64,000 nt of DNA. Source: a virus. The DNA is taken from the IMG/VR virus record IMGVR_UViG_3300025073_000025, positions 1 to 64,000 of that record, one strand, 5' to 3'. The notes under the pieces were generated by a model that saw nothing but the letters and a program-made list of their open reading frames with translations, searched no databases and was not told the DNA's origin. Shown here in pieces: positions 1-57,146 of this stretch (positions are counted from its first letter, which is position 1; every line of letters begins with the position of its first letter). The position numbers were made by a program, and so were the translations under genes.

Positions 1-98
1 TATAGAAGAAAACTCTAGACGATAAGAATACATATCCTGTGGATCTAAATTATTATAGGGAACTATTCCTAAAAAACCCAAATCAAAAGAACGAAGCA
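1..98 (-). pseudogene. Sulfotransferase-family gene, 3' portion (interrupted by TnpB element; runs off window edge)
   Basis: The 98 bases to the window edge are open in the frame that continues the sulfotransferase fragment at 1352-1411 once the TnpB element (99-1350) is removed. The joined protein begins MPRLVVLSNPRSGTSLL and continues through LLRSFDLGFLG and VPYNNLDPQDMYSYRL with no stop. With the element in place, this part could still start at the ATG at 97-99, because the element end places GGAGG six bases upstream; that product would lack the P-loop and should not bind PAPS. The family call rests entirely on the upstream fragment. The true C-terminus lies outside the window. Confidence 0.7.
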
Positions 99-110
99 TT
101 GACATCCTCC
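97..110 (-). promoter_or_regulatory. Shine-Dalgarno supplied by the IS right end
   Basis: On the minus strand the element ends GGGGGAGGATGTCAA and is followed by TG, so GGAGG lies six bases before an ATG whose A belongs to the element. This ATG opens the frame of the downstream sulfotransferase remnant. The arrangement is seen directly. Its use for re-initiation is inference. Confidence 0.5.
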
Positions 111-235
111 CCCGACTAAAGTCAGGGGATTCCTAAGGAATTTCCTCTTTAGCACTCAATGTCCTGAGTGGAGAATGCAGAGTTGAGAGGCCTCGTTGTT
201 CAATATTGATAGCTGAGTTGGTATCCCTATCGTGC
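99..235 (-). ncRNA. Predicted omegaRNA/reRNA at the TnpB right end
   Basis: In TnpB systems the guide RNA scaffold comes from the 3' end of tnpB plus the right end of the element, and the guide is read from flanking DNA. Here the corresponding region covers the last codons of tnpB and the RE hairpin (109-128), and the guide would begin TGCTTCGTTC inside the sulfotransferase gene. The hairpin is visible in the sequence. The RNA and its 5' limit are inferred from the family. Confidence 0.45.
109..128 (-). repeat. Right-end hairpin of the TnpB element
   Basis: On the minus strand CCCCTGACT and AGTCGGGGG can pair over nine positions (one T-G wobble) around a TT loop. The hairpin lies five bases downstream of the tnpB stop codon, the usual place of the RE structure recognised by TnpA and forming part of the omegaRNA. 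Confidence 0.8.
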
Positions 236-1209
236 ACCGTGCCACACTCTTTACACTGCCATTCTCTAACTCGAAGCCCTGCTAGACCGGAGGGCCCAGT
301 AAGGCACCCACAGGCTGAACAGGTTCGAGTAGTGTTGTTCTCGTCAACAACGTAGTACGTACCACCACGCGCAATCGCTTTGTATTCAATGAAGGTACGG
401 AGCTGACCCCAAGAAGCGTCGGAAACTGACTTGGCTAGCCTGGTCTTTAATAGACCAAGGCTGTCTACGTCACCGATGAATACCTTATTAAAGTCTCTGG
501 TCAACTCATGGGAAACTTTATGGTTGAAATCTTTACGAGAGTTAGCTATCTTAGCATGAATCGTTCTTACTTGACGTGCATTATTACACCGTTGGTGGTG
601 AGCAAGCTTTCTCTCATACTTGCGGAAGAACTTTTGAGCATCGTACTTTTTACCGTTAGACAAGGTAGCCAAAGACTTAAGTCCTAAATCAATGCCAACA
701 CTACCTTCGTTGGAAACAAGGGCTTCCTCGTATTCACAGACAAGGTTAAGGTACCAACGACCCCTAACGTCACAAGAGAAGTTTCCACCCTTAATTTGTT
801 CAGGAATACTTCGAGTCTTCCAGAAGCGGAATATTCGTCCTTGGTAAACAACGGAATCCTTACGAAGTTTTATTCCAGAAGCTTTGAAAGGAATCCAGCC
901 CTGGCTTCTTCTACCACGGAATCGTAGGAAACGTTTCTTTTTACCAGTAGGAGATTTGGCTTCCTTTAGTGAAGTAGCATAACATTCGTCAATAGCTTGA
1001 ATAGTTTGGCTATGCAAACGAAGTTCCTTGGAACACCCGGAAGTTAGGTTATTTAACATTACCCAATTAACCCAGGGCCTATGACTATTAGCAGCCTTCT
1101 TTTGAACCTCATTGCAATAGTTCCATACAAAGTTTACAGCTCTAGCCATAGCATAAAGGTGCTTAGCAGAGGTGGAATCTTTTATACGGAAGGAAAAAGT
1201 TTTAACCAT
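133..1209 (-). CDS. tnpB: TnpB, RNA-guided nuclease of an IS200/IS605 element
   Basis: The 358-residue protein has the full TnpB layout: an N-terminal OrfB/HTH_OrfB region, RuvC-I with GIDLG (D174), the RuvC-II region, a C-terminal zinc ribbon (C297, C300, C319, C322) and RuvC-III with HDRDTN (about 326-331). I start it at 1209 rather than the upstream ATG at 1266: the MVKTFSF start is conserved in the family, GGGAGG precedes it, and the stretch up to 1266 holds the promoter. Oddity: the RuvC-II motif reads FIGDVDS, with Gly246 where most TnpB proteins carry the catalytic Glu; E275 in FIEYK is a possible replacement. Known family role: DNA cleavage guided by omegaRNA, promoting element retention. 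Activity of this copy is uncertain. Confidence 0.93.
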   Translation of the reverse strand: MVKTFSFRIKDSTSAKHLYAMARAVNFVWNYCNEVQKKAANSHRPWVNWVMLNNLTSGCSKELRLHSQTIQAIDECYATSLKEAKSPTGKKKRFLRFRGRRSQGWIPFKASGIKLRKDSVVYQGRIFRFWKTRSIPEQIKGGNFSCDVRGRWYLNLVCEYEEALVSNEGSVGIDLGLKSLATLSNGKKYDAQKFFRKYERKLAHHQRCNNARQVRTIHAKIANSRKDFNHKVSHELTRDFNKVFIGDVDSLGLLKTRLAKSVSDASWGQLRTFIEYKAIARGGTYYVVDENNTTRTCSACGCLTGPSGLAGLRVREWQCKECGTVHDRDTNSAINIEQRGLSTLHSPLRTLSAKEEIP

Positions 1210-1213
1210 TGAA

Positions 1214-1230
1214 AGTCCCTCCCTGGGACT
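1214..1230 (-). promoter_or_regulatory. Hairpin over the tnpB ribosome-binding site
   Basis: In the tnpB leader AGTCCC pairs with GGGACT around an AGGGA loop, taking up the only GGGAGG Shine-Dalgarno, which lies just before the ATG at 1209. The structure would limit tnpB translation. Pairing is seen directly; the regulatory role is inference. Confidence 0.45.
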
Positions 1231-1237
1231 TATTATA

Positions 1238-1266
1238 ATAATAGGTTGCGAGGCTAAAAAGGTCAA
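1238..1266 (-). promoter_or_regulatory. sigma70-type promoter of tnpB
   Basis: TTGACC (1261-1266) and TATTAT (1238-1243) are separated by exactly 17 bases on the minus strand, each one or two changes from the consensus. It lies inside the element, 28 bases before the tnpB start codon, and gives an independent transcript for tnpB. It also argues against the longer tnpB start at 1266. Confidence 0.6.
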
Positions 1267-1307
1267 CTATTATTTTAATCTTTCTAAAAATCAAGAAGGC
1301 CTTATAT

Positions 1308-1327
1308 CCCACCCCTAAAGGGATGGG
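1308..1327 (-). repeat. Left-end hairpin of the TnpB element
   Basis: CCCATCCC and GGGGTGGG pair around a TTTA-type loop on the minus strand (one T-G wobble). It lies 22 bases inside the predicted left end and matches in position the subterminal LE structure of IS200/IS605 elements. Confidence 0.75.
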
Positions 1328-1351
1328 TTTTACGGCCCTGTAAGATGACTA

Positions 1352-1411
1352 TAAATGTGTTAATAAAGATGTACCAGACCTAGGATTACTTAAAACGACC
1401 AACCTAGGCAT
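1352..1411 (-). pseudogene. Sulfotransferase-family gene, 5' portion (P-loop fragment)
   Basis: The ATG at 1411 lies within the last codons of the upstream methyltransferase (its TAG is at 1404-1406), as in a translationally coupled gene. The frame encodes MPRLVVLSNPRSGTSLLTHL and then meets a TAG at the element boundary. LSNPRSGTSLL is the 5'-phosphosulfate-binding P-loop that begins sulfotransferases, normally within the first 10-20 residues as here. The full enzyme would transfer sulfate from PAPS to a sugar or tyrosine. The rest of the gene resumes in frame at 1-98. Unless the element excises, the gene is broken. Confidence 0.75.
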
Positions 1412-1958
1412 AGCCAACCCACGAAACAAAAAGCCCTGTGGGTGTTAGGACTTCTACCCAAAAATAACCGGCCCCCTTTAAAATAGGAACTATTTCTTTA
1501 TATTTAACAGAATTAGCATTGTGTATATCATCAACCATAACAAAATGTCCCTTCTTATTTAAACACCCTTTGATAGCATTATACTCATTAACAGTGTGTG
1601 CAATATCAAATTCCTTAGAATCTAACCATAAAACATCAATAGGACAATCCTTAGAAGATAATTCAAAATTTAAGAGACCCAAAGAAACAATACTATCACC
1701 AAGAACATATACACAATCATCTCCGCAGCACACAGACCTAGCAATGTATTGATGTTCTTTATCTATATCTAAAGAAAATAATTTACCGCCATTAGGCCTG
1801 CATATATGCTTTAATATATTGTTGGTAGTTGTGTGTACTAGATTTTCTTCTGAAATAGCATACATTGTACCTGTTTCTACACATACGGGACAAGGACGCA
1901 TAACCTGCCCTATTTTTTCACATACCTGTTTAACAGTGTTTAGTCCACTAAAATCCAT
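1404..1958 (-). CDS. Class I SAM-dependent methyltransferase (Methyltransf_24-like)
   Basis: This 184-residue protein shows a compact Rossmann methyltransferase order: VETGTMYA near residue 28 (motif I), a FSLDID acidic strand end about residue 64, YVLGDS about 85, VLWLDSKEFD about 109 and FVMVDDIH about 139. This is typical of Methyltransf_24 enzymes that modify sugars or small metabolites. It begins inside the end of the previous methyltransferase gene (11-base overlap) and its last codons contain the start of the interrupted sulfotransferase. It therefore belongs to the glycan-modification operon. The substrate is unknown; O-methylation of a sugar is an inference from the neighbouring glycosyltransferases. 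Confidence 0.7.
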   Translation of the reverse strand: MDFSGLNTVKQVCEKIGQVMRPCPVCVETGTMYAISEENLVHTTTNNILKHICRPNGGKLFSLDIDKEHQYIARSVCCGDDCVYVLGDSIVSLGLLNFELSSKDCPIDVLWLDSKEFDIAHTVNEYNAIKGCLNKKGHFVMVDDIHNANSVKYKEIVPILKGAGYFWVEVLTPTGLFVSWVGYA

Positions 1959-6712: not shown

Positions 6713-7459
6713 TTATTTCTTTCTAGACTTTACAGGGGTTGTTAGGGCTCTTTCAATAGACATCCCTAATTTCTTTATCCTAGAACTCAATGTAGTTTGA
6801 TTTATACCATACTCTTTAGCCCAATCGGACAGAGTCTGTAATTTTCCATCATAGTCATAGCGCTTAGCATGTTTATAACCAGGACTTTTTTCACCTTTGT
6901 GACCAAACATATTGTTATTTTCACCAAACATGTCACTTTTTACCGTCGTGGCTAAGGCCCTTTCAAGCGGCCAGCCCATCTCTTTTACTCGGGAGGCAAG
7001 GGTTGTTTGGCTCATATTGTACTCTTTCGCCCAAACAGACAAAGGCAGGGATTTTCCATTGTATTCCCAGCACTTAGCATGTTGATACCCAACGCTGTTT
7101 TCACCAGACATTTTCTGCTTTTGTTCCTCTGTATACTTAACTCCCAAAGATGACCCGGACGTGGGAGATATATTATATCCCACCTCCGAGTCGGTCACAT
7201 TCAAATAGTCCATCCAATACTGTTCCCGTTCTTTAAGGAGTTCTTTATCTTTAGGAACATATTCTATAACCTCAAAAACAAAAGCTTCTGGGCCATACTT
7301 TCTCCACGCGCTAAGAAGGTGTGGGTTTGCACTCCTAGAACCTCTATTAAACCTTTTAATATGGCTTCTCCACCTTAGCTTAAAATCAGCCGTCTGTCCT
7401 ATGTATATTTTTCCATTAACTAAATTACAAATACAGTATATACCAGATTTTGTAATCAT
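6713..7459 (-). CDS. GIY-YIG homing endonuclease with two NUMOD-type DNA-binding modules
   Basis: The N-terminal 95 residues form a GIY-YIG nuclease: [17 protein letters not shown] at the start, LRWRSH with the conserved Arg, and EREQYWMDYL with the catalytic Glu. The C-terminal part has two tandem copies of a 45-50-residue module ([33 protein letters not shown]-type pattern, again from YDYDGKLQTL), a helix-turn-helix NUMOD-like domain, separated by a NUMOD3-like NNMFGHKGEKSPGY. It overlaps the previous gene (TAATG). It is a paralogue of the nuclease at 10160. It is a selfish element in an intergenic slot; target unknown. Confidence 0.9.
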   Translation of the reverse strand: MITKSGIYCICNLVNGKIYIGQTADFKLRWRSHIKRFNRGSRSANPHLLSAWRKYGPEAFVFEVIEYVPKDKELLKEREQYWMDYLNVTDSEVGYNISPTSGSSLGVKYTEEQKQKMSGENSVGYQHAKCWEYNGKSLPLSVWAKEYNMSQTTLASRVKEMGWPLERALATTVKSDMFGENNNMFGHKGEKSPGYKHAKRYDYDGKLQTLSDWAKEYGINQTTLSSRIKKLGMSIERALTTPVKSRKK

Positions 7460-9326: not shown

Positions 9327-10163
9327 TTAATTATCTATATACTTTTTGAGTATTTCCTTTTCTTCTTCTGTTATCTGTTCTAAATTTATTTTTGGGGTTA
9401 AAATATTTGTTATTATTATTAAATTTCCTTTTTCCCCGCCGTTAATTCCTGGTGCCCCCTTACCTTCTACTATAATAACACCACCATTTTCATTATTGGA
9501 ATATACAAACCCTCTTGGAATAGTAACAAAGTATTCAAACTCATTACTACACTTACCAGAACCAGAACACTCAGGACACTGTTCACTAGGAGCCAACCCA
9601 AGGCCTCTACAAGAAGAGCAAGGCTGACTCATACGAAGCATACCATGGGATATAAACTGCTGGCCTGAGCCCCCACAAGTACTGCACGGGGTATCATACT
9701 TAAGATAGCCATACCCCGCACAATTTGGACATCCAGAGTCAAATTTTAACCTACCAGAAAACTCTCCACCAAATATTGCTGAGTAAAGAGTAGTGTCATA
9801 CTTAATTCTTACATCCTTCCCACGAGCTACTACCTTAGGATTTGGTTTTGGTCTTTGTCTGGGACCACTAGCACCAAATCCAAAATGTGCACCAAAAATA
9901 TCATCAAAATTAGTACTAGTCCAGGAATTAAATCCAGGTCCCCCATTAAAACCAGGGTTTTCTAATGAAAAATCATACTGTTGTCGTTTTTCAGAGTCTC
10001 CTAAAACCCCATAAGCCTCAGAAACCTTCTTAAACTTCTCTTCAGCTTCTGGGTCATCCTTATTTATATCTGGATGGGTTTCCTTAGCTTTCTTTCTATA
10101 GGCTTTTTTTATCTCATCTTCTGAGGCCTCTTTAGACGCGCCTAACACATCATAAAAAGTCAT
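9327..10163 (-). CDS. dnaJ: DnaJ-type co-chaperone
   Basis: The 278-residue protein has a J domain with HPD at 30-32, a Gly/Phe-rich stretch (about 70-105), a zinc domain with four CxxCxGxG-type repeats ([32 protein letters not shown], about 145-208) and a shortened C-terminal substrate domain ending soon after GEKGNLIII. It is thus a class I DnaJ about 100 residues shorter than the usual form. It would recruit the host DnaK to phage substrates such as the replisome or virion proteins; no DnaK is encoded here. It overlaps the GIY-YIG gene by four bases (ATGA). Confidence 0.9.
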
Positions 10164-10996
10164 TTTTTCACCGGTGTTAGGAGGGCCCTCTCAAGGGACC
10201 AACCCAACTTTTTTACACGAGAAGCTAGTGTTGTTTGGTCTATATTATATTCTCTGGACCAGTCGGACAACGGTTGGGATTTTCCATTGTAAGACCAACA
10301 TTTAGCCCGTTTATAGCATGGGCTCTTCACCCCTGTGCGTCCCCACATAGGGTTATTCTTACCCATTAGGGACTCAGACCGCTTACGCTTGTATTCTTCT
10401 GTACGATGTTTACCATAATTAGGGCTATCCTTTCCTGTACGGCCAAACAGCGGGTGATTCTCCCCTAAAAGCTTTCCCTTATTAGACTTAGATATCCTCC
10501 GTTTGGTTTCTTCTGGACGTGGTTTACCAAAATTTGGGCTACTTTCACCTGTACGACCGTACATTGGGTTTTTCTCACCTGTGCAACCGTACATTGGGTG
10601 TTTCTCACCTGTCCTACCATACATTGGGTTTTTCTCCCCTAAAAGCTTTCCCTTATTAGACTTAGATATCTTCTGCCTAGTTTTCTCTAAAACTTCCCGC
10701 CCACGAGTATTACCCGCTGTAGGACAAATATTATATTCAGGATGTAGCTCATCTATCCAACGCTGTTCCACGGTAATAAGTTCACACTTATCTATTACGT
10801 CCTCCAAAACACCAAAATAGAAGTTACCCTCACCATATTTGTTCCAAGCGTTCTGTAGATGTAAAGAGTGATGACTACCTTTATTTAGTTGCCTTTTGTG
10901 CTCGTGCCATCTCGCCTCAAAATCTATAGTTGACCCAATGTATATTTTCCCATTAATTAAATTACAAATGCAATATATTCCTGATTTAACAACCAC
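10160..10996 (-). CDS. GIY-YIG homing endonuclease with a NUMOD3 array
   Basis: A GTG start at 10996 follows GAGGAA. The 278-residue protein has a GIY-YIG domain ([18 protein letters not shown] in ARWHEH, E in [10 protein letters not shown]), a run of about eight NUMOD3-like motifs of the form [10 protein letters not shown], and one C-terminal helix-turn-helix module ([14 protein letters not shown]...[12 protein letters not shown]) also found twice in the nuclease at 6713. The NUMOD3 array is partly built from 30-bp tandem repeats and a 39-bp exact duplication. It sits between a zinc-ribbon gene and dnaJ. It is a mobile intruder rather than part of the replication machinery. Confidence 0.9.
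10458..10670 (-). repeat. 39-bp exact direct repeat inside the GIY-YIG gene
   Basis: The 39 bases at 10458-10496 recur exactly at 10632-10670, 174 bases (58 codons) away and in the same frame. Both copies encode the KLLGE part of the NUMOD3 region and the ISKSNKGK segment. This indicates recent internal duplication of the DNA-binding array. Confidence 0.9.
10541..10630 (-). repeat. Three 30-bp tandem repeats coding NUMOD3 units
   Basis: Three successive 30-base units (10541, 10571, 10601) differ by a few substitutions and encode ten-residue units of the type [10 protein letters not shown]. They lie between the two 39-bp copies. Confidence 0.85.
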
Positions 10997-18369: not shown

Positions 18370-21195
18370 TTATACACAAACAATACTACCAGATAAATCT
18401 ATAACCCTATCTTGTGACATACCTATAACAAAAGCCTGTAGATGATAGACCCCTCCTACAGCAGACACGACTGCTTGCATGTCGTAAGTGCTTAAATCAA
18501 CTAGCATGGCTATTGCCGAACGCACAGCTTCATCCGTAGAATTGAAATTAACGATGGAATTAATACGTTTAATTCTATCATTAATACCCCTATCAAAAAA
18601 AGAACCAGTACTGGTAACTTCTTCTAAATTAAGAACCCAGCGCTTATTATCTATAGAATATACCCCACCACTAGCTGGGTCATATATATACTCTGAAACA
18701 CCAGAAGAGAAATACAGCCGCAACTTCTTATACAAAGAAGCCGTTGTACCCTCATTTTTATATATATCAATAATACTACTATCTGATAAATTTCTAAACC
18801 TATGTATATATGGACGTATAGTAGCAGTTAAATCGCTGCTGAGGAATAAACCCAAAATACTGGCTTGCATATCATTATTATATGCACGAGTACCTATAAT
18901 ACGTCCATATAAATTACAAAATAACCTTTCTCTTGTATTAAAATATAAATCTATAACACGTATTCTGGTAAGTTTTTTTCCTACAATAAATGAAAAAATA
19001 TCAGATATACAAGATAAGGAATCTATAGTAGCATATAAATCACCACTACCAGCCCCACTAACAGAACACCTTATAAAAGATAACAAGTCTTTATAAGAAG
19101 ACAAGGGGGCACAACTTCCCCCAGGATTAATAAACGCCCTTAGCTCCAAAAATGGTATGGTATAAACAGGTATTAAACGAAGCCCCTTTACTTCCCTATA
19201 AGCATTTATACTAGCACCAATAGTAGACACACTACCTACAGAAATAACTGAAGAAAACAAATCATAAAAACCCCCACTTGAAGAAATATCCGCCGTTATA
19301 TCAGAAAGTGTGAACGACTGTAATAAAACCGCTAAAATAGCCACATGTGTCAAATCCAAAGACACCACTGAGGCCAATAAATTTGCGTAGGGCCAAACAC
19401 TTATAGAGGAATAAAGATCGGAAACAGCCCATGACCTAACATATGCCCATAAATCTGGAGTTGAGCTATTGTTAACAAACGTAATAGGACGAACAACCCC
19501 TATAACTGGCCCTGGAATAAAAAGACCATAATTGGTAGCCAAAAAAGCCCTACTAATAGAAGCAGAAGTTATCCAATGAGCACCAACAGAAGTACTTGTA
19601 CCAGTAGAAACAAACCCCTGTATAAAACAAGACAATACTTTATAAGCAGAAAAAGCATTTAACTCAGCAAATAAACCACTAAAATTCCTAAAAATTAGGT
19701 CCAACTTATTTATAACTAGGGGTTTAGTAACAGAAAAACTACTTGTGGACAAATCATACGAAAGTCTAAGAGCTGGTCGTATAAAAGCCCTAAAGGTTGA
19801 CGTGTATAATTGAAAAGCAACTACAGAAGCACTTAAATCAGGAAAATAGCCCCTAATCGGATCCATTGTCATAATGGACAAACCACCTCTAGATCCAACC
19901 AAGAACTTTCTATGGGGGTGAGTAAATAAATAATAATTATATGGCTTATCTGTTGTATGGGCACTTATTATACCCTTTACAAAGACAAGAACATCAATAG
20001 TAACATGAGTAGTAGCACGTATAAACGAAACAAGATCCTTTAAATTACCAACACTTATACCCTTTATATAAGCATACATACTATCAGTATATTCACCTAA
20101 TATAAAAACAGTTAAATCACTAGTAGCCCAACCATACAAACGAGCATAAATATCTTTTGGTATACTGACAATAATACCTGCAAAAATGCTAGAAAAATTC
20201 CTATACATAGCATCTATTCTACCCCCCATATCCACCCAATACCCCGTAGAAGTAAGACTAGACAAAAGATCTAACATTCCACTAAGACCAGAACGTATAA
20301 AAACAGGTAAATCTTTCGGTGGTATAACCAACAAATTTGCATAAATATCTTCCGGTAAATGCCCTCCCCCAACGGCCCTTAGCTCCTTAGGTTCAATAGA
20401 TAAAATATAAGAATTAAGATCAGCAGGTGAATACCCCACAACAAGAGCCCCAATATCAGAAGGTTGTATAGTTACAAGCTCACCCAGCATATCCCTAATT
20501 CGTGTCGGCCCCAAATAAGCATTGAGATCAGATATACCCTTCCCTATCCCTCGTATATTGGCATATGTAATAGCCTCGCCTCTAAAACCAATACCCGAAT
20601 ACACGGATAGATCTGAAACAGCCCACCCCCTAATACTACCCGTTAAATCTGGCAACTTAGTTAAACAACGTTTTAATATGGAAAAACCAAATGGGGTAGC
20701 CAATAAAACAGAGGTATAAGAGAGAGCCTCTGTGTGAACACGAGCAGTACCAGATATACCAACGTATAAATTAATACTTGTTTGATAGGACGACACAATT
20801 ATACTTCGTAAATCACTGGTTACTAAGGTAACCTTAGGATAAATAAATGCCCTTAAATCCGAATACAAAACCTCGGCAAAAATATCTGTGAATAAATCTG
20901 TGCTGGTTCTCAATAAAGCATTGATAAAGGCAGACAAATCCAACGTACCAGAATATAGAGGGAGAAACCCTCCGGCATCATCATGTTTAAGTCTAGCATA
21001 AACATTTTTAGGAAAAGCACTAGAGTCCACCAAGCCCCTATATTTAAGATGTCCCTGAACAGGGCCCTCTAAAACAGCCCCAACACTGCCTCTTCTGGAA
21101 AGCCTGGTACCCAAAACAACGTCCATAACACCACCAAGAACACCCGGCTTGGACATTCTAGCCCCAAATAGGCCTATGTTCTTAATTAGAGACAT
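18370..21195 (-). CDS. Repeat protein built of DLxAxI units (putative tail fibre, beta-solenoid)
   Basis: The 941-residue protein is made of a short repeat throughout most of its length: S/P-x-D-L-x-A-x-I followed by a turn, with Asp-to-Asp spacing of 12 to 15 residues (for example SDIGALVVGYSP, ADLNSYILSIEP, EDIYANLLVIPP, all 12). GWAVSDL or GWATSDL recurs as a variant linker. Residues around 780-880 are less repetitive. One strand per unit suggests a beta-solenoid. No family is recognised. It ends the structural block and has no clear Shine-Dalgarno; its ATG lies six bases after the previous stop, so coupling is likely. Confidence 0.7.
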   Translation of the reverse strand: MSLIKNIGLFGARMSKPGVLGGVMDVVLGTRLSRRGSVGAVLEGPVQGHLKYRGLVDSSAFPKNVYARLKHDDAGGFLPLYSGTLDLSAFINALLRTSTDLFTDIFAEVLYSDLRAFIYPKVTLVTSDLRSIIVSSYQTSINLYVGISGTARVHTEALSYTSVLLATPFGFSILKRCLTKLPDLTGSIRGWAVSDLSVYSGIGFRGEAITYANIRGIGKGISDLNAYLGPTRIRDMLGELVTIQPSDIGALVVGYSPADLNSYILSIEPKELRAVGGGHLPEDIYANLLVIPPKDLPVFIRSGLSGMLDLLSSLTSTGYWVDMGGRIDAMYRNFSSIFAGIIVSIPKDIYARLYGWATSDLTVFILGEYTDSMYAYIKGISVGNLKDLVSFIRATTHVTIDVLVFVKGIISAHTTDKPYNYYLFTHPHRKFLVGSRGGLSIMTMDPIRGYFPDLSASVVAFQLYTSTFRAFIRPALRLSYDLSTSSFSVTKPLVINKLDLIFRNFSGLFAELNAFSAYKVLSCFIQGFVSTGTSTSVGAHWITSASISRAFLATNYGLFIPGPVIGVVRPITFVNNSSTPDLWAYVRSWAVSDLYSSISVWPYANLLASVVSLDLTHVAILAVLLQSFTLSDITADISSSGGFYDLFSSVISVGSVSTIGASINAYREVKGLRLIPVYTIPFLELRAFINPGGSCAPLSSYKDLLSFIRCSVSGAGSGDLYATIDSLSCISDIFSFIVGKKLTRIRVIDLYFNTRERLFCNLYGRIIGTRAYNNDMQASILGLFLSSDLTATIRPYIHRFRNLSDSSIIDIYKNEGTTASLYKKLRLYFSSGVSEYIYDPASGGVYSIDNKRWVLNLEEVTSTGSFFDRGINDRIKRINSIVNFNSTDEAVRSAIAMLVDLSTYDMQAVVSAVGGVYHLQAFVIGMSQDRVIDLSGSIVCV

Positions 21196-45500: not shown

Positions 45501-48121
45501 ATAGGCTCATTATATTTTGCCAATAAAAGCATCGAGTCTACTATAGGCCATTCCCTAGTAGCCATGCTCCACTTATATTTTATTTCCACGTCCCTAGTCT
45601 CTGCAAAAGCAGACTGCACAAGCAAGCTTATGCGCTTAATACCGATTAATCTTCCATCCTCGTCCTTAAACATAACCGTAAACGTATAGCTGCCTTCGTG
45701 CAGCCTAACTTCGGACAATTTTTCGCATAGTCTAGACAAAGAAAACGGAGTACCGTCACTAGAAAACACATTACCTGCGTAAGAGTTTTCTAAATAAGCC
45801 CCCTCTGACTCAAAAATTTGGCTAGAGGCTTTTATACTCCCATCCTCTAAACCACCGTTCCTAAAACTATAAAGAGAAATACCCTCCTGCCCCACTAACT
45901 CCCTATATACACGATTCTTATGGTCTTCTAAATTATAAACTTTATCTAAAGAGTTTGGACCAGAAAGCTTCACAAATGTACCAGAAACAGAAAAGGTATC
46001 TCCCTCCTCGTTATATGAAACCTCTATAGGCATTTCATCTATATAATTAGCTAGTAAATCTGGGTATTTAAGCTTGGATACATCTTGTGAAAGAACCGGG
46101 CCCTGCTTATACTCCGTAACAGAGTACGTAGCATATATCTTATCTGTCAAAGGGTCCAAACTGGAACTAAGACTAGTACCACTAACAGGGCCAGCAATAA
46201 CTACATTTCCTTGTAGATATTGACCATTAGATGACTTATAATAGACCTCTAATTGCACAATGCCTTCTGTAGCCTTAGCATTTTCCGTCCTGTCTACATA
46301 GACCCTTAATGGTACACCATAAGTAGAAGTACCAGACAACAACCAGGGTGTAACACAATTACACCTACCGTCTAAGAAATTTATTGCAACCAAATTACAG
46401 TAAATAGGGTCCCAATCTACCTGTAGCTCATCTTCTATAACCTCTTCTATTTGATATGTAGTTAGCTTTCCTCCTGCATGTGTATCCCACAATACCTTAT
46501 GCACACGAGGATAGTTAACCAACTTCATAATCTTAGCCTCTAACTCAACATGCTCAAACCTATCCACCCATGGATGCATTTCTTGGTGGCCAGATAAATC
46601 ATCCCCTCTGGTTTGAGCTAACATAGCATGATAAAATTTATGTTTTATATAAGCACTAACAGTTAGGTATTTGCCAGTCTCCCCCCTTAAGTCTGGAACA
46701 AAAACCTTTATAACATTTAAACCAGGAACTGCCTCTATAAATTGAGACCCCCCCTTGTAAACTAAAGGAACATCAAAATATATAAGATCATTAGCAGTTG
46801 TGGTAGAATAGTAAGGTATAACATCATCAGGAAAATTTCCCTGCATATAGTCCAAAAAATCTTTATCTGAAAAGCTTCCTTGGGGGTATTTTGTTATATT
46901 GATAGCAACTACATTAGAATAGTGGGGGGTCTCCACAAATATACGAATAATATTTTGACCTTGTCTAAATGTCCTATAAACATAGGGGCTTGTAGCTGGG
47001 GCCTTTGGCCAGGCTATTTTTATAGTCCTAGCTACATCGGACAACTCTTGTATAAGGGTAGGATAAGAAACTGTGGGAACTATTTCATCGTCAACAAAAT
47101 TGTTAACGACTAAACCATTACTAGTTTCTACGGGTGGGTCTATAACTATAAGGGGCTCTTTTGTACTAAAATTATCTATATGAACCCTCTTAACCATAGG
47201 TTTAGCGTCTAAATCTATGTCCGCTCCAGCCTCTATGCCCTGAAAACCACCTGTCCAGGCCCATATATCAGGACTCTTAAATCTCTTATTCCACTCAATC
47301 TTAGGAGCCTCCATAGAAGCCCAATCGTCACTATAGTATCTAAGCTCTAATACTTGTGAAGCAGAAATCCTATCCCCTAACTCCATTCTACCATCTCTAC
47401 AATACGTCCATAGAGGCCCCGTATAATAAGGACACTCCGGCTTACAGCCGTTACAACCATAAGCGTATGGATTTTGTTCAGTAAAAGGAGTTAGCCAAGG
47501 AAGAGTTACAGCACTTAACTTACAAAAAGAGGCTATACTACCTATATTAGTATACTCCCCCTTAGTATTTGTAGCTAAATAAGGTACTGTTATTTTAAAC
47601 GAACTACTATAGATAACCGCATATAGAATGCCGCCCCTACTTTTCTCAAAAACAACCGGTTGAGTTGTCCAATTACAACACTTCTTAAAAGACGCCCTTA
47701 AATTATATATAGATAAGTTTATAGGAACTTGTAAACCACTATAATTGGAAGAAGAAACCTGTTCCCCGTGGGTAAGGGTATTAATAAAATGAGAAATATC
47801 ACTTGCTTCATCTGCCGTAAGACTTCTTACTGGTAAATATTTATTTTGTTCATCATTCCAAACTTGTAAAAAATGATCCGTATAAACTTGTTGGGTATCT
47901 TTATGAGATATTTTTAGCCCGCCGACGTCATATGCAGAACAATTTCTACAAGTGCCCGACCCATTACATTTACCCTTATTATAGCAAGAAATTCTGGCAG
48001 GGGAAAAATAGGTATAGGCATGACAACGACCAGGGCTACCCTCTAAAACTACAGAAGGGCTATTTTCATGGGTCAACCAATAAATACAAACATTGCTGGC
48101 TACCCTAGTCAAGTTAGCCAT
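42554..48121 (-). CDS. Giant virion protein with N-terminal cysteine clusters (1855 aa)
   Basis: The largest protein of the middle block has two cysteine clusters: C12, C33, C46, C52, C58, C61 (with CYNKGKCNGSGTCRNC) and C148, C149, C200, C223, C226, C230, C241 (with GCNGCKPECPYY). Such clusters are rare in phage virion proteins and suggest bound metal. The remainder is beta-rich with no recognisable enzyme motif. It precedes the 1676-residue protein with a one-base overlap, so the two are probably made in equal amount. A baseplate or adsorption-apparatus role is inferred. Confidence 0.6.
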   Translation of the reverse strand: MANLTRVASNVCIYWLTHENSPSVVLEGSPGRCHAYTYFSPARISCYNKGKCNGSGTCRNCSAYDVGGLKISHKDTQQVYTDHFLQVWNDEQNKYLPVRSLTADEASDISHFINTLTHGEQVSSSNYSGLQVPINLSIYNLRASFKKCCNWTTQPVVFEKSRGGILYAVIYSSSFKITVPYLATNTKGEYTNIGSIASFCKLSAVTLPWLTPFTEQNPYAYGCNGCKPECPYYTGPLWTYCRDGRMELGDRISASQVLELRYYSDDWASMEAPKIEWNKRFKSPDIWAWTGGFQGIEAGADIDLDAKPMVKRVHIDNFSTKEPLIVIDPPVETSNGLVVNNFVDDEIVPTVSYPTLIQELSDVARTIKIAWPKAPATSPYVYRTFRQGQNIIRIFVETPHYSNVVAINITKYPQGSFSDKDFLDYMQGNFPDDVIPYYSTTTANDLIYFDVPLVYKGGSQFIEAVPGLNVIKVFVPDLRGETGKYLTVSAYIKHKFYHAMLAQTRGDDLSGHQEMHPWVDRFEHVELEAKIMKLVNYPRVHKVLWDTHAGGKLTTYQIEEVIEDELQVDWDPIYCNLVAINFLDGRCNCVTPWLLSGTSTYGVPLRVYVDRTENAKATEGIVQLEVYYKSSNGQYLQGNVVIAGPVSGTSLSSSLDPLTDKIYATYSVTEYKQGPVLSQDVSKLKYPDLLANYIDEMPIEVSYNEEGDTFSVSGTFVKLSGPNSLDKVYNLEDHKNRVYRELVGQEGISLYSFRNGGLEDGSIKASSQIFESEGAYLENSYAGNVFSSDGTPFSLSRLCEKLSEVRLHEGSYTFTVMFKDEDGRLIGIKRISLLVQSAFAETRDVEIKYKWSMATREWPIVDSMLLLAKYNEPIIASSPEGSINYSPMCGDHSETMGSRHFFGDPGPMWYPYSRCLDPKYDNTSYTDEVKCKNYVEGFSSQTSGKRWSYWERMRGPDKFYTWNAGGIYILGCFYRSISYTYETVGEQEFVGYTRIRSLHMNGPYAKDREALHINRHYIKRNLKVRDEVIQRADDPNTISWTDEYSQLLFTDGGVERVGEDRETAIWSHINDNASEVSTTTEDIQHPFTHYLLKTVGNYSYDEVFNTGLRVSLDGLFSDRDLTSTQQRNPVTGTLIYKPGEPMYTAGLEQYDDILPVFSEPSTAWSWMEVSKDPVRGSPRVTGIRIYAPSSTEWKQDKTSATHSDEGIHTLYYSPPAFNDSGVLVSLPYVSWDDGPERPLNWYAGRWRDSGTVYEYSSHTNVENFKLFGVGSTSTGSSFLIDSSGIHQCVLGNDNAGVVYGYTYRGVGVNSLVSIFQLPSVVTDFIEEDLSSGKKVELLNSKFSNYTTNTITIPLKGYFYVDSVDITYNFGPYTDELGQPIRYDIPGISVMAAILVTENGETSSNRYVEVANRGYQRITTGEVSEGEDDEGTVFTYQGLSSKKIVYQVGMFCDHVVVSYSSLETVARASISSFRIWYRKPIEVSESVYSYERKFNYSSGNYGTHDYRNMLYYYNRTYRDYGDDLAYTVSSNTSRPSVKLTNRNIKDVILEYEFVDPTYTRFAYKSEIRPENNPLAAVDVDGLRTIPGSISVCTKGRTLIAGIHKNDCPQYRADGSLNTRNVAFNETSTCSSEVGNKTLNEGVQECLYNEARNLAGRGDIVTVYDWFWHPDEVEFWENTVGISLGTFNTQLTMTSKVAEFNKVWEHESFGCASDLSVPYYDGYVHPIGKWQAMGHILEVTSPLFNESCWDVVVTKEGKHLGESTYGTKEYGSLVGKARWPYEAAKDSGYYLAAGLIMDRRTYEGGSIGGAGIWGIVIDHAKAAGNLPQQRSLMAELNEEVYSGREMSVRADAPRTGF

Positions 48122-48490
48122 CTAATCTACATCCTTGACATCCAACCTCATCTGTCCAGTATAGTGATTAACCCTATAAATTATTTTGCTTTTTCCTTCG
48201 TAATAACCTATACAGTGTTCTAGACATTCTATATCAGAAGAAAAATCTCCGGAGAGAGAAAAACTAGCCGCCCCCCTTTTAAATTGTACATAAGAACTCT
48301 TTCCACTTATAGTCCAAAACTTTTCTCCCCACTTTAAACCCAAAGTTTTTATATTAAACTTACTTACCTTATTCCAATCAGCTTGGTTTTCAGTTATAAC
48401 TGTTCCATCATTATAGACTAAAAACCAACCGATAGGTAAATTCATAATATTATCGTCTATAGAAAATCCTATGGGGGTAGCGTTTCTCAT
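48122..48490 (-). CDS. Small hypothetical protein before the giant virion gene
   Basis: The ATG at 48490 has AAGGTGAGAG upstream; the GTG at 48505 would leave no spacing. The 122-residue product is mixed alpha/beta, with WFLVYNDGTVITENQADW and GEKFWTISGKSSYVQFKRG segments. No family is recognised. It abuts the 1855-residue gene directly and may be a virion accessory or assembly factor. Confidence 0.65.
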   Translation of the reverse strand: MRNATPIGFSIDDNIMNLPIGWFLVYNDGTVITENQADWNKVSKFNIKTLGLKWGEKFWTISGKSSYVQFKRGAASFSLSGDFSSDIECLEHCIGYYEGKSKIIYRVNHYTGQMRLDVKDVD

Positions 48491-48524
48491 TTTAAATTCT
48501 CTCACCTTTAATCAAAGAAATATA

Positions 48525-48884
48525 TTAAATACTTTTGTGGTGAATTTGCTCATGCACTGAAATAGCCTTTCCCACTTCTTCTTCTACCTCCTCTAAAATC
48601 TCCTCTTTTATTCTATTTAGTGGGCCCTCCAAAGATAAAAAATTCTGTTGAAGTTCAACTACCTTCCGTATTTCATTGGAGAGATTCTCAGTAGCCTTCA
48701 CAAGCTCTAACATGTGTTGGTCAACTGCCCGATGCCTCTCTTCACACAAGCTCACTAAAACAGACGCAGGGCCCTCTACATCATTACGATGTCGATAGCG
48801 AAAAATTGCGACTTCCCCACCTTTCCATCCCAGCAAAGCTACAATTACAGCCGCGATAACTTGTCCAATGATAGCTACATCCAT
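48525..48884 (-). CDS. Single-TM coiled-coil protein (holin- or spanin-like shape)
   Basis: The 119-residue protein has one hydrophobic helix at the N-terminus (IIGQVIAAVIVALLG, about 5-20), a basic stop-transfer stretch (FRYRHRN) and then a long charged coiled-coil (NLSNEIRKVVELQQNFL, IKEEILEEVEEEVG). The shape fits small phage lysis or membrane-tether proteins, but no family signature is visible. It follows a 203-base gap (48885-49087) that contains no gene; I see no convincing promoter in it. Confidence 0.6.
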   Translation of the reverse strand: MDVAIIGQVIAAVIVALLGWKGGEVAIFRYRHRNDVEGPASVLVSLCEERHRAVDQHMLELVKATENLSNEIRKVVELQQNFLSLEGPLNRIKEEILEEVEEEVGKAISVHEQIHHKSI

Positions 48885-49087
48885 TTGTTTTTTCCTATCC
48901 TAAGTTAATTTTGATTTTTTATCGCCCACAAAATTTTTCGGCGAAAGAAAAAACCCTTAAAATAATACTACAATAGAGGTAATGTCCTATATAGTCCCCA
49001 AAGAAAAAAACAAGACCGAAAATTAAAATGCAACTCTGGGTTAATAATTTAGGTTTAAGCATTAAATCACACATACAAAAACATAAA

Positions 49088-50224
49088 CTAATATACCACT
49101 ATGCCTATAACTCTAAAATCTTCTTTTTGCATAAGCCTTATATTAATACCGTGTATACGTTTGCACTCGTCCATCTTGTACTGATCTTTATCTGTCATAT
49201 AACCCTTAACCTCAACAAACTCCCCTGTACCTGGCAAATAAAAATCAGGAAAATAGTAATGAGGGGAACCCTCAGAGTCATAATATTTAAATTTGTATGT
49301 TTCATACTCCCACTCAACCCTCTGGGAATCTAAATACCGAGCATATTTTTCTTCCCAAGAAGACCGCAAAAAAACAACTTTCCCCTTAATATCCTCAAAC
49401 CTTATAATACTAGAATAAGGAAAGCTAATAAGAGTACCAAAAAGATAATGGTTTTCTCCCGAAATCTTACTTATGCGTATTTTCTCTCCCCTAGCAACAA
49501 CCTCTTCTTTTGTAAAATTTTCGTGCCATATATCCAATATTCTTCTCTTACTAACACCAAAGGAAAGTGCAACCTCCCTCGACGTTTGACTACTACTAAA
49601 AGCCTCAACAGCACTATCATAAAGTTTATTATATAGGCCCCTATGTTCGAGACTTCTCTTTGACTTCATGGCCAAATGCTGCTCCAACCTAACAGTGGCA
49701 ACCCCACAAACTGGACAACGGGCCAAGTCCCCCTTTTTATCCTCACGCCCCAATTCTGAATAACATTGCATACACAAACCCCTCGAGCCATGTGGAATCT
49801 CACTAGTACCACATTTAACACACCTATCATAATACCAAGACCACCCTCCAAAATTACGATTCCGTTTCCCCCTATCCCTCACCTGTTTTTTAGCAACACA
49901 ATGCTCACAACGTCCCTTAGACTTGTATCTAACCTCCGTAGTACCACACTCAGTACAGCAATCATATTTTTTAGACCACTTACCCCCTGTTAAGTCCCTC
50001 TTTATAACTATCTCTCCAGAACGAGCCTTTCTTCTATAACAATTGCGACAATACCCGTCTCTAGTATGTTTTAACTCTGTGGTACCACACTCTCTACAAC
50101 AATCATATTTCATAGACCAGCGCCCGTTAGAAGTAAAACTAGCCTTACCCCTACGGTTGTGCCCATGTACAAACCTTCCACCTGGTACCTCTGTTCCACA
50201 GCCACACTCACATAGATTTGACAT
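49088..50224 (-). CDS. Homing endonuclease: zinc-ribbon array plus Vsr-like PD-(D/E)XK domain
   Basis: The start at 50224 follows AGGAGG by six bases; an upstream start at 50254 lacks a site. The 378-residue protein has a CECGCG...GHNRRG motif at the N-terminus, three similar zinc ribbons (CCRECGTTE...CRNCY, CCTECGTTE...CEHCV, RCVKCGTSE...CMQCY) and a fourth CPVCG, then an HTH region (REVALSFGVSKRRI), a NUMOD3-like SGENHYLFG, and a C-terminal nuclease with WEEKYARYL, YFPDFYLPGTGEFVEVKGY. The latter resembles the Vsr-like nucleases of the EDxHD group known from phages. It occupies a slot between structural genes and has its own promoter candidate. Confidence 0.8.
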   Translation of the reverse strand: MSNLCECGCGTEVPGGRFVHGHNRRGKASFTSNGRWSMKYDCCRECGTTELKHTRDGYCRNCYRRKARSGEIVIKRDLTGGKWSKKYDCCTECGTTEVRYKSKGRCEHCVAKKQVRDRGKRNRNFGGWSWYYDRCVKCGTSEIPHGSRGLCMQCYSELGREDKKGDLARCPVCGVATVRLEQHLAMKSKRSLEHRGLYNKLYDSAVEAFSSSQTSREVALSFGVSKRRILDIWHENFTKEEVVARGEKIRISKISGENHYLFGTLISFPYSSIIRFEDIKGKVVFLRSSWEEKYARYLDSQRVEWEYETYKFKYYDSEGSPHYYFPDFYLPGTGEFVEVKGYMTDKDQYKMDECKRIHGINIRLMQKEDFRVIGIVVY

Positions 50225-50330
50225 CTTGTGCCTCCTATTATCTATAAATGTCATGAGCCCAAGCGACTCTTACCCTATATATAATAAGAAGCATATGATT
50301 TGTAAATCAAAAAAGAAACATAATATAATT

Positions 50331-50360
50331 ATTTTAATGCCCCATTACTAATAAAGTCAA
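50331..50360 (-). promoter_or_regulatory. Possible promoter before the zinc-ribbon homing endonuclease
   Basis: TTGACT (50355-50360) and TAAAAT (50331-50336) are separated by 18 bases in the 144-base gap after the 523-residue protein gene. Each hexamer has one mismatch. It could transcribe the nuclease gene and the structural genes beyond. No terminator of the classical kind is seen in the gap. Confidence 0.45.
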
Positions 50361-50368
50361 AGAATATA

Positions 50369-51940
50369 CTATGAGTAATCGAAGTAGGCCCTCATACATA
50401 TGGCAGAATTACTACCCGTTTCTGCGCTTCCTAATTTTATTCCAGTAAATATAGCATCGGAAGCAAGACCAATATTTCCAATAGTTTCTGCTGAATCTGC
50501 GTCAGAAACAACAGCAAGGTCTTCTTTAGATGCCCACAGGTTAGTTGGAGAACCAGTGGAACCACCCGTCTTATCCACAGAGATATCTGTAGCTAAAATA
50601 TTGGCAGCCCACTCTACACCTGCATCAGCCACAGGGCCAGAACCATCACCCCTATTAGCAGGGCCAACGGTACCATAATGAAAAAGCGTATCCGCGTTCC
50701 CAGCATCATGATGACTAAATGTTCCATGGCTATATAGAGAAAACTTAACATTAGAAAGAATACGAGCACCAGAAATAATTTCAAACTGGTGTACTTTCAC
50801 AGGAGAGTTGGTTGTAACCGTAACATTTCCATAGGACATACTAGTAACACCATAAGCTTCGGGATGTGGAGCACGACACATAATTCTCCATTCGTCCTGA
50901 ACAGCTAGTGCACTTGAAGTCCATTTCATGGTAATACCCTTAGTACCTATACTTACATAATCAGTACTAGTTGTTAAGTTCCCACTAGAATTATCACCAC
51001 GGTCAGAATAGAACCTCACCGTAGCAGCCCCTACAGCACCATTACCCCCAGCCGCAGGAGTACAAGTTATAGTGAAAGTATCACCATTTCCAAATTGGGC
51101 GTCCGTAAACTTAATCCTAGCACCATAAGTCCCTAAATAATACCACTCGTCTGAGAAAAGAAGTTCCTGAGCCACTGCAACATTATCGCCGGCAGCACCA
51201 GCATCCGTAGCCGTAAACGTAGGAACACTTCCCGTTCCAGCATTCATAACCTCTTTTCCACCAGAAGCATCAATCGTAACGGTATAAGTAGAACCCAGAC
51301 TATGGTTCCAGTCACCTGTTACATAGGCAGTGCCAGCATAAACATTTCCGCCCCCGGGAGTTATTGCCATTAAAGCTGCATTAGTACAAGCTACATGGTA
51401 TTCTTCGTCAAGCAACCCACCATATGTACCACTAGAAGTAGCCGTACCAGCATAGGTATTGCTATTGGTCGCGGCCCTATTGTAGTCTGTATGATAGACA
51501 TCACCGGCTTTTGTGGTAGTAGTATTCAAACCAAGGGTTGACCTGGCATTATTTGTACCATCGGTAATAGCTACAGAGCTACTAGCCCCGCTCGTACCAG
51601 ACCTAATTACATAATGACTCTCGCCGTCCCCAGAAAGTAGGTTAGAAAATTCAGCGTCTGCATATTTATATGCATTACCTAGAGAACTTAATACCTGAAG
51701 CTTCCTCTGTATATCTTTTGCAACAAACCTAGGATCTAAATCAGTACCAGAGGTAAGAGTAATCTCTTGAGCACCAATGCCATCCAAATTAACCCTTATT
51801 TGGTTATTAGATGCCCCAATAGTAAAGGTATCGGAAGTAGATCCCGTACCCACTACTAGACCCCTTTGTCCTATGTTGGCCGATGATACATAGGTAGCTC
51901 CCGCAATCGGAAACCTCACCCATCTACTCGTTGCCGTCAT
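50369..51940 (-). CDS. Probable abundant virion structural protein (523 aa)
   Basis: The protein is rich in Gly, Ala, Thr and Ser and its DNA is visibly less AT-rich than its neighbours, with a very strong GAGGAGGAT site, all of which suggests high expression. Residues about 36-138 form the domain shared with the 1676-residue protein (IRVNLDGIGAQEITLTSGT, VAKDIQRKLQ, YVIRSGTSG, RSTLGL), similar in outline to flagellar-cap/tail-associated modules. The C-terminal part includes FGNGDTFTITCTP and DEWRIMCRAP. A fibre, sheath or decoration protein are all possible. Confidence 0.6.
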   Translation of the reverse strand: MTATSRWVRFPIAGATYVSSANIGQRGLVVGTGSTSDTFTIGASNNQIRVNLDGIGAQEITLTSGTDLDPRFVAKDIQRKLQVLSSLGNAYKYADAEFSNLLSGDGESHYVIRSGTSGASSSVAITDGTNNARSTLGLNTTTTKAGDVYHTDYNRAATNSNTYAGTATSSGTYGGLLDEEYHVACTNAALMAITPGGGNVYAGTAYVTGDWNHSLGSTYTVTIDASGGKEVMNAGTGSVPTFTATDAGAAGDNVAVAQELLFSDEWYYLGTYGARIKFTDAQFGNGDTFTITCTPAAGGNGAVGAATVRFYSDRGDNSSGNLTTSTDYVSIGTKGITMKWTSSALAVQDEWRIMCRAPHPEAYGVTSMSYGNVTVTTNSPVKVHQFEIISGARILSNVKFSLYSHGTFSHHDAGNADTLFHYGTVGPANRGDGSGPVADAGVEWAANILATDISVDKTGGSTGSPTNLWASKEDLAVVSDADSAETIGNIGLASDAIFTGIKLGSAETGSNSAICMRAYFDYS

Positions 51941-51958
51941 ATATTCATCCTCCTCTTA

Positions 51959-54472: not shown

Positions 54473-54480
54473 TTAAACTC

Positions 54481-57135: not shown

Positions 57136-57146
57136 ATATTACACCC

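What the first reader, a model, noticed from the sequence alone, without database searches (positions are those of the whole stretch)
1..1411. TnpB-only element splits a phage sulfotransferase gene, and its removal restores the frame exactly
The gene starting at 1411 encodes a sulfotransferase P-loop (LSNPRSGTSLL) and stops at the element boundary after 20 codons. Cutting out 99-1350, with ends placed from IS200/IS605 rules (left after TTTAT, right after TCAA), joins codons TTA-T|TG-CTT and gives an open frame to the window edge. The boundaries were predicted independently of the frame, so the in-frame junction supports both. It shows a recent, reversible knock-out of a phage modification gene.
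Basis: partly seen in the sequence, partly recalled or inferred. Interest (0 to 1): 0.8.

Follow-up and report, generated by a model that had tools for sequence, protein, structure and literature searches.

The report
TnpB mobile element inside phage sulfotransferase

Summary
An IS200/IS605-type, TnpB-only element occupies 99-1350 (minus strand), between the first 61 bases and the rest of a gene whose two halves share one reading frame. Two results place the ends. The right end, ...GGATGTCAA|, is the exact point of divergence between near-identical relatives at different sites. The left end is repeated as a 61-base solo left end elsewhere in a sister contig of the same phage: the match starts at the predicted first base, keeps TTTAT, and diverges one base before it.

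Two sister contigs extend past the window. The joined frame runs 88 codons, including a second sulfotransferase-like motif (RDPRSVITSV), then meets a 10-G run that shifts it; 9 or 12 G would give 213-214 codons. Removing the element alone therefore does not restore a full-length gene. No empty site, intact homologue or TnpA was found, and all three assemblies are occupied, so 'recent' and 'reversible' are unproven. Sulfotransferase identity rests on two motifs and one sub-threshold profile match.

New member of a known kind. Extras: this left end has an unusual 17-base spacer (76 other left ends: 9-12), and the sister contig carries two IscB genes.

The parts
99..1350 (-). TnpB-only IS200/IS605-type element, 1252 bp
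   Evidence: Right end by divergence of near-identical relatives after TGTCAA/CGTCAA; left end by solo left-end copy starting at the same base
133..1209 (-). tnpB gene from ATG (MVKTFS...); the longer TTG-started ORF runs 133-1266
   Evidence: Pfam OrfB_IS605 and Cas12f1-like_TNB; NCBIfam guided_TnpB; Foldseek best matches are ISFba1 and ISDra2 TnpB
1351..1355 (-). TTTAT target/cleavage site CL, kept in the left flank
   Evidence: TTAT is found next to 76 of 76 other GTAAAA-class left ends; TTTAT precedes both copies in this phage
1308..1327 (-). Left-end hairpin CCCATCCCTTTAGGGGTGGG
   Evidence: Sequence; same architecture in relatives, followed by ATATAAGG
1328..1331 (-). Left guide AAAA (counterpart of IS608 GL AAAG)
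   Evidence: IS608 pairing of GL with CL from PMC5934647; relatives pair AAAA with TTAT and GAAA with TCAT
109..128 (-). Right-end hairpin CCCCTGACTTTAGTCGGGGG
   Evidence: Sequence; conserved in relatives
129..132 (-). Right guide GAAT, as in IS608 GR
   Evidence: Sequence; IS608 GR is GAAT
99..102 (-). Right cleavage site TCAA, last four bases of the element, as in IS608 CR
79..98 (-). Flank expected to be the guide part of the omegaRNA (TGCTTCGTTCTTTTGATTTG)
   Evidence: Inference from ISDra2, where the last about 16 nt of reRNA come from the flank (PMC8612924); no RNA data here
1351..1411 (-). 5' piece of the probable sulfotransferase gene (P-loop NPRSGTS)
   Evidence: Sulfotransfer_3 sub-threshold match
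1..98 (-). 3' piece of the same gene as far as the window goes; continues in L008:5861-6442 with RDPRSVITSV and a G10 run at L008:6043-6052
1404..1958 (-). Upstream gene; its stop overlaps the start of the sulfotransferase gene (ATGCCTAG); carries the anchor used to find the sister contigs

Best explanation
This is a non-autonomous IS200/IS605 element carrying only tnpB. It entered a probable sulfotransferase gene in a sugar-modification gene cluster of a jumbo-size phage by the usual single-strand, TnpA-catalysed route, 3' of a TTTAT (TTAT) site and without target duplication; the TnpA must have come from the host or another element (inferred). TnpB with an RNA from the right end is expected to cut the empty site TTTAT+TGCTTCG... 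so that repair from an occupied copy keeps the element in place (inferred from ISDra2). The insertion breaks the gene after codon 20. The gene also has a G10 run that shifts the frame, so the gene is off twice over in this population. Shown here: element, ends, site, interruption, second frame break, absence of TnpA in the three records. Inferred: mode of entry, retention by homing, enzyme function.
For: TnpB family and fold. Right-end boundary from relatives. Left-end boundary from a solo left end in the sister contig with different left flank and the same TTTAT. Guide/cleavage-site rule: 76 of 76 other left ends of this class have TTAT as CL, fitting the IS608 pairing. No Y1 TnpA in G000, G001, G002. 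In-frame junction and open frame of 88 codons; 9 or 12 G would give 213-214 codons. Both halves lie in one cluster with a DegT aminotransferase, a radical-SAM/B12 protein, PglD-like and epimerase genes and glycosyltransferases.
Against: The left-end spacer is 17 nt to GTAAAA, against 9-12 in 76 relatives, and the element begins with A where 65 of 77 begin with C. At spacing 11 there is GTCAT|C, a possible rival end that would leave TAG in frame. The solo left end argues against that rival but is a single comparison. TnpB lacks the glutamate at the usual RuvC-II place (glycine in the alignment, G253 of window:133-1230), so activity is not certain. The sulfotransferase label rests on motifs only.
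Confidence: 0.82

Rival explanations
1. The left end is six bases further in (99-1344, after AGTCAT): the rule-conforming spacing. The empty site then contains an in-frame TAG, and excision would leave a stop codon.
For: Spacing of 11 fits the family range of 9-12, and the element would begin with C as most relatives do. GTCAT is used as CL by some GAGAAA-class relatives.
Against: The solo left end in the sister contig shares TTTATAGTC before the rest of the end, but has CCT instead of CAT at the rival site. Guide AAAA calls for TTAT, not TCAT. The Pfam Sulfotransfer_3 score falls from 14.3 to 10.9 bits if two residues are added at the junction.
Confidence: 0.12
2. The sulfotransferase is a phase-variable gene: the G10 run changes length by slippage and the TnpB element is a later, second way of switching it off.
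For: The only G or C run of 10 seen; about 0.09 expected in the 144 kb of the record by base composition. Both halves are otherwise open, and 9 or 12 G restores the frame. The window's contig ends 85 bases before the run, which may reflect length heterogeneity.
Against: Both contigs show the same length, 10. Runs of 8-9 C or G also occur between genes in this record. No reads or relatives to show variation. With the gene already broken, the run may simply be decay.
Confidence: 0.2
3. The element is co-opted: TnpB kept as a guide-RNA regulator (TldR-like) or as a weapon against rival phages carrying the intact gene, not as a transposon relic.
For: The usual RuvC-II glutamate is missing; phage-encoded TldR regulators are known (PMC13418256, title and abstract only).
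Against: D181, E297 and D336 (window:133-1230 numbering) are invariant in 14 relatives, which suggests an active site with a moved glutamate. Intact element ends and a flank that would serve as guide against its own empty site point to ordinary retention.
Confidence: 0.08

Closest known systems
IS608 / ISHp608 (IS200/IS605 family)
   Same: Right end GAAT-hairpin-TCAA identical in kind; left hairpin preceded by a guide that matches the cleavage site; no target duplication (paper PMC5934647)
   Different: No tnpA; guide AAAA with TTAT instead of AAAG with TTAC; guide lies 19 nt from the cleavage point against 15 in IS608
ISDra2 TnpB (Deinococcus radiodurans)
   Same: RNA-guided TnpB fold (8exa, 8h1j); flank-derived guide and target-adjacent motif equal to the insertion site expected (PMC8612924)
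   Different: TTGAT motif; canonical RuvC-II glutamate E278, which is glycine at the aligned place here; ISDra2 has tnpA
TnpB elements of Burkholderiales, e.g. Massilia, Pseudoduganella, Rugamonas
   Same: 40-46% identical TnpB, same right end AGGACGTCAA
   Different: GAGAAA guide with TTCAT; multi-copy in bacterial chromosomes
IMG/VR contig 3300048839 TnpB (L012)
   Same: Closest TnpB outside this phage, 55% identical; GTAAAA guide and TTTAT target
   Different: Spacer 10 instead of 17; another site

Membership tests
IS200/IS605 family, TnpB-only (IS1341-like) | TnpB protein with OrfB_IS605 and zinc-finger/TNB domains | tested here: met
IS200/IS605 family, TnpB-only (IS1341-like) | Subterminal hairpins with guide and cleavage sequences at both ends | tested here: met
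   GAAT/TCAA at right, AAAA/TTAT at left; left spacer unusually long
IS200/IS605 family, TnpB-only (IS1341-like) | Insertion 3' of a fixed short site, no target duplication | tested here: met
   TTTAT before both copies in this phage, flanks diverge; right ends diverge at once
IS200/IS605 family, TnpB-only (IS1341-like) | No tnpA in the element | tested here: met
RNA-guided TnpB nuclease | RuvC D-E-D active site | tested here: inconclusive
   D181 and D336 invariant; canonical E is G253; E297 invariant in all 14 aligned relatives and could replace it. Distances in the model could not be measured
RNA-guided TnpB nuclease | omegaRNA from the tnpB 3' end and right end | tested here: inconclusive
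   Rfam HgcC matches L008:5710-5873, 28.9 bits, below its cut-off of 50; not seen in seven relatives
Sulfotransferase | 5'-PSB P-loop near the N terminus | tested here: inconclusive
   NPRSGTS present; Sulfotransfer_3 14.4 bits, cut-off 27
Sulfotransferase | 3'-PB motif downstream (R-D-P-R...S) | tested here: inconclusive
   RDPRSVITSV present after the element; motif recognised from general knowledge, no profile match there
Sulfotransferase | Profile match over most of the protein | tested here: not met
   Residues 2-26 only; none in NCBIfam, PDB or phages

The most novel reading that the evidence does not exclude
One phage gene with two independent off switches: a slipping G10 tract and a TnpB element whose transposase must be borrowed. 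The phage would toggle sulfation of a surface glycan, with the RNA-guided nuclease holding the off state in the population.
Probability: 0.1. Interest if true: 0.55.

Novelty: new member of a known kind. Interest (0 to 1): 0.32.

Why it matters
It is a clean, coordinate-exact case of a transposase-less TnpB element inside a phage accessory gene, with both ends fixed by comparison rather than by rule. The same phage also carries a solo left end of this element and two IscB genes, so several RNA-guided-nuclease elements seem to have spread in one large phage genome with no transposase of their own in the sequence held. The catalogue of 77 left ends shows how strictly target and guide match, and that this phage's left end has a longer spacer. 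The second lesion is a caution: an in-frame junction at a window edge is not proof of a restorable gene.

Tried and rejected
Exact empty-site 23-mer in viral contigs: none. Homologue searches with the whole joined protein and with its first 82 residues, the latter including a junction-spanning peptide pattern: only the two occupied sister contigs. tblastn in named phages: no match. PDB sequence search: none. NCBIfam: none; PHROGs: one weak unrelated match. IStron idea (self-splicing intron that would make the insertion harmless): no group I intron in Rfam. Rival left end at 1344/1345: considered seriously because of the spacer rule, then disfavoured by the solo left end. Reading TAG as sense: not pursued, since several genes here end in TAG and frames are otherwise standard.

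Full report
Setting. The window is bases 1-64000 of a linear IMG/VR record of 145,543 bp. Two other contigs, IMGVR 3300002097_000869 (133,010 bp; G001, locus L008) and 3300002093_000425 (52,147 bp; G002, locus L009), match the first 6 kb at 99.9% or better and run past the window's end. Window position p corresponds to L008 position 5959-p. The first 12 kb of G001 is identical to window 46657-58656. The part of G001 beyond the window matches the own record only in scattered gene-family repeats (61-133 kb of G001 compared). The phage genome is therefore probably about 220 kb or more, a jumbo phage; this sum is an inference, and the host is unknown.

The element. The ORF at 133-1266(-) is a TnpB; its AlphaFold model (mean pLDDT 82) matches ISFba1 and ISDra2 TnpB best. 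No Y1 TnpA is found in any of the three records.

Right end. The end reads GAATCCCCTGACTTTAGTCGGGGGAGGATGTCAA|, with the GAAT guide and TCAA cleavage site of IS608 (PMC5934647). Near-identical elements at different sites, such as L027/L034 and many Burkholderiales pairs, diverge directly after ...GTCAA. So base 99 is the last base of the element.

Left end. IS608 pairs guide bases +16 and +17 with -3 and -4 of the cleavage site. I collected 77 distinct left ends containing GCCGTAAAAC...GGATATAAGGC. All 76 others have TTAT, at 9-12 nt before GTAAAA, mostly followed by C. Ours is the exception: TTTAT at 17 nt, and GTCAT|C at 11 nt. The second placement would leave TAG in frame at the empty site, and since the two placements differ by six bases the frame cannot tell them apart. 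I put about 0.85 on 1350/1351. The long spacer is thus a shared property of this phage's copies, not a scar of one insertion.

The gene. The joined frame gives MPRLVVLSNPRSGTSLLTHLLLRSFDLGFLGIV... for 88 codons. It contains NPRSGTS before the element and RDPRSVITSV after it, which resemble the two PAPS-binding motifs of sulfotransferases (general knowledge). Pfam Sulfotransfer_3 matches only residues 2-26, below its cut-off. The gene starts inside the stop of the upstream gene and is followed by a DegT-type aminotransferase and a radical-SAM/B12 protein, with glycosyltransferases upstream, so a role in glycan modification is likely but inferred.

The second lesion. In both L008 and L009 a run of ten G (L008:6043-6052) shifts the frame 183 bases past the right end; with 9 or 12 G the frame would run 213-214 codons. 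Hence cutting out the element alone does not give a full-length protein. The run may be decay in an already broken gene, or a phase-variable tract; the two contigs have the same length and no reads were available. By base composition about 0.09 such runs are expected in 144 kb.

State of the population. Three assemblies, all occupied. The exact joined 23-mer is absent from viral contigs, and no homologue was found. 'Recent' is plausible because both halves are otherwise open, but no dated comparison exists; 'reversible' is not shown.

Function of TnpB. D181, E297 and D336 (numbering of window:133-1230) are invariant among 14 relatives, while the usual RuvC-II glutamate is glycine. The most likely reading is an active nuclease with a moved glutamate, but no paper on this was found in the library and no distance could be measured. 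An Rfam match to HgcC covers the tnpB 3' end, the right end and 13 bases of flank, which is the place of an omegaRNA, but at 28.9 bits against a cut-off of 50, and seven relatives gave no match.

Verdict. An ordinary but well-defined member of a known kind.

Noticed in passing
L008:6043-6052 (outside the window): Ten-G run inside the 3' part of the sulfotransferase gene that shifts its frame; 9 or 12 G would leave it open. Possible phase-variation tract.
   Followed up: partly
L238:8025-8084 (G001 about 121 kb): Solo 61-base left end of this element without tnpB; read on the other strand it forms the C-terminal codons of a phage ORF (...YQKALYPTPKEMGSTTL*).
   Followed up: partly
L237:888-2306 and L237:16619-18022: Two IscB genes (RRXRR plus HNH) in the same sugar-gene region. 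Each is followed directly by the start codon of the next gene, as if the element inserts just upstream of ATG; a similar right end without iscB lies at about L238:7760-8017.
   Followed up: partly
window 133-1209 (TnpB): RuvC-II glutamate absent from its usual place; an invariant glutamate (E297 of window:133-1230) precedes the zinc finger in all 14 relatives aligned.
   Followed up: partly
L008:5710-5873: Sub-threshold match to Rfam HgcC over the tnpB 3' end and right end; the HgcC consensus ends in a hairpin plus GGAGGAGGUCAG much like an IS605 right end, so HgcC itself may be a TnpB right-end RNA family.
   Followed up: partly
77 left ends from viral and bacterial loci: Guide and cleavage site covary (AAAA with TTAT, AAAG with TTAC, GAAA with TCAT) and spacing is 9-12 nt except in this phage (17).
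   Followed up: yes
window 6713-7459, 10160-10996; L004, L005, L006: Several genes that look like GIY-YIG endonucleases ([18 protein letters not shown]) and a second repeated family (KLTYEEVK..GYTLLS..Y) scattered over the genome; read from sequence, no profile run.
   Followed up: no
window 18370-63950: A run of very large minus-strand genes (up to 2057 aa) that look structural or tail-related; not examined.
   Followed up: no
L004:6091, 16664, 19132-19149: Other runs of 8-9 C or G in this AT-rich genome, all between genes; the last is a perfect hairpin.
   Followed up: no
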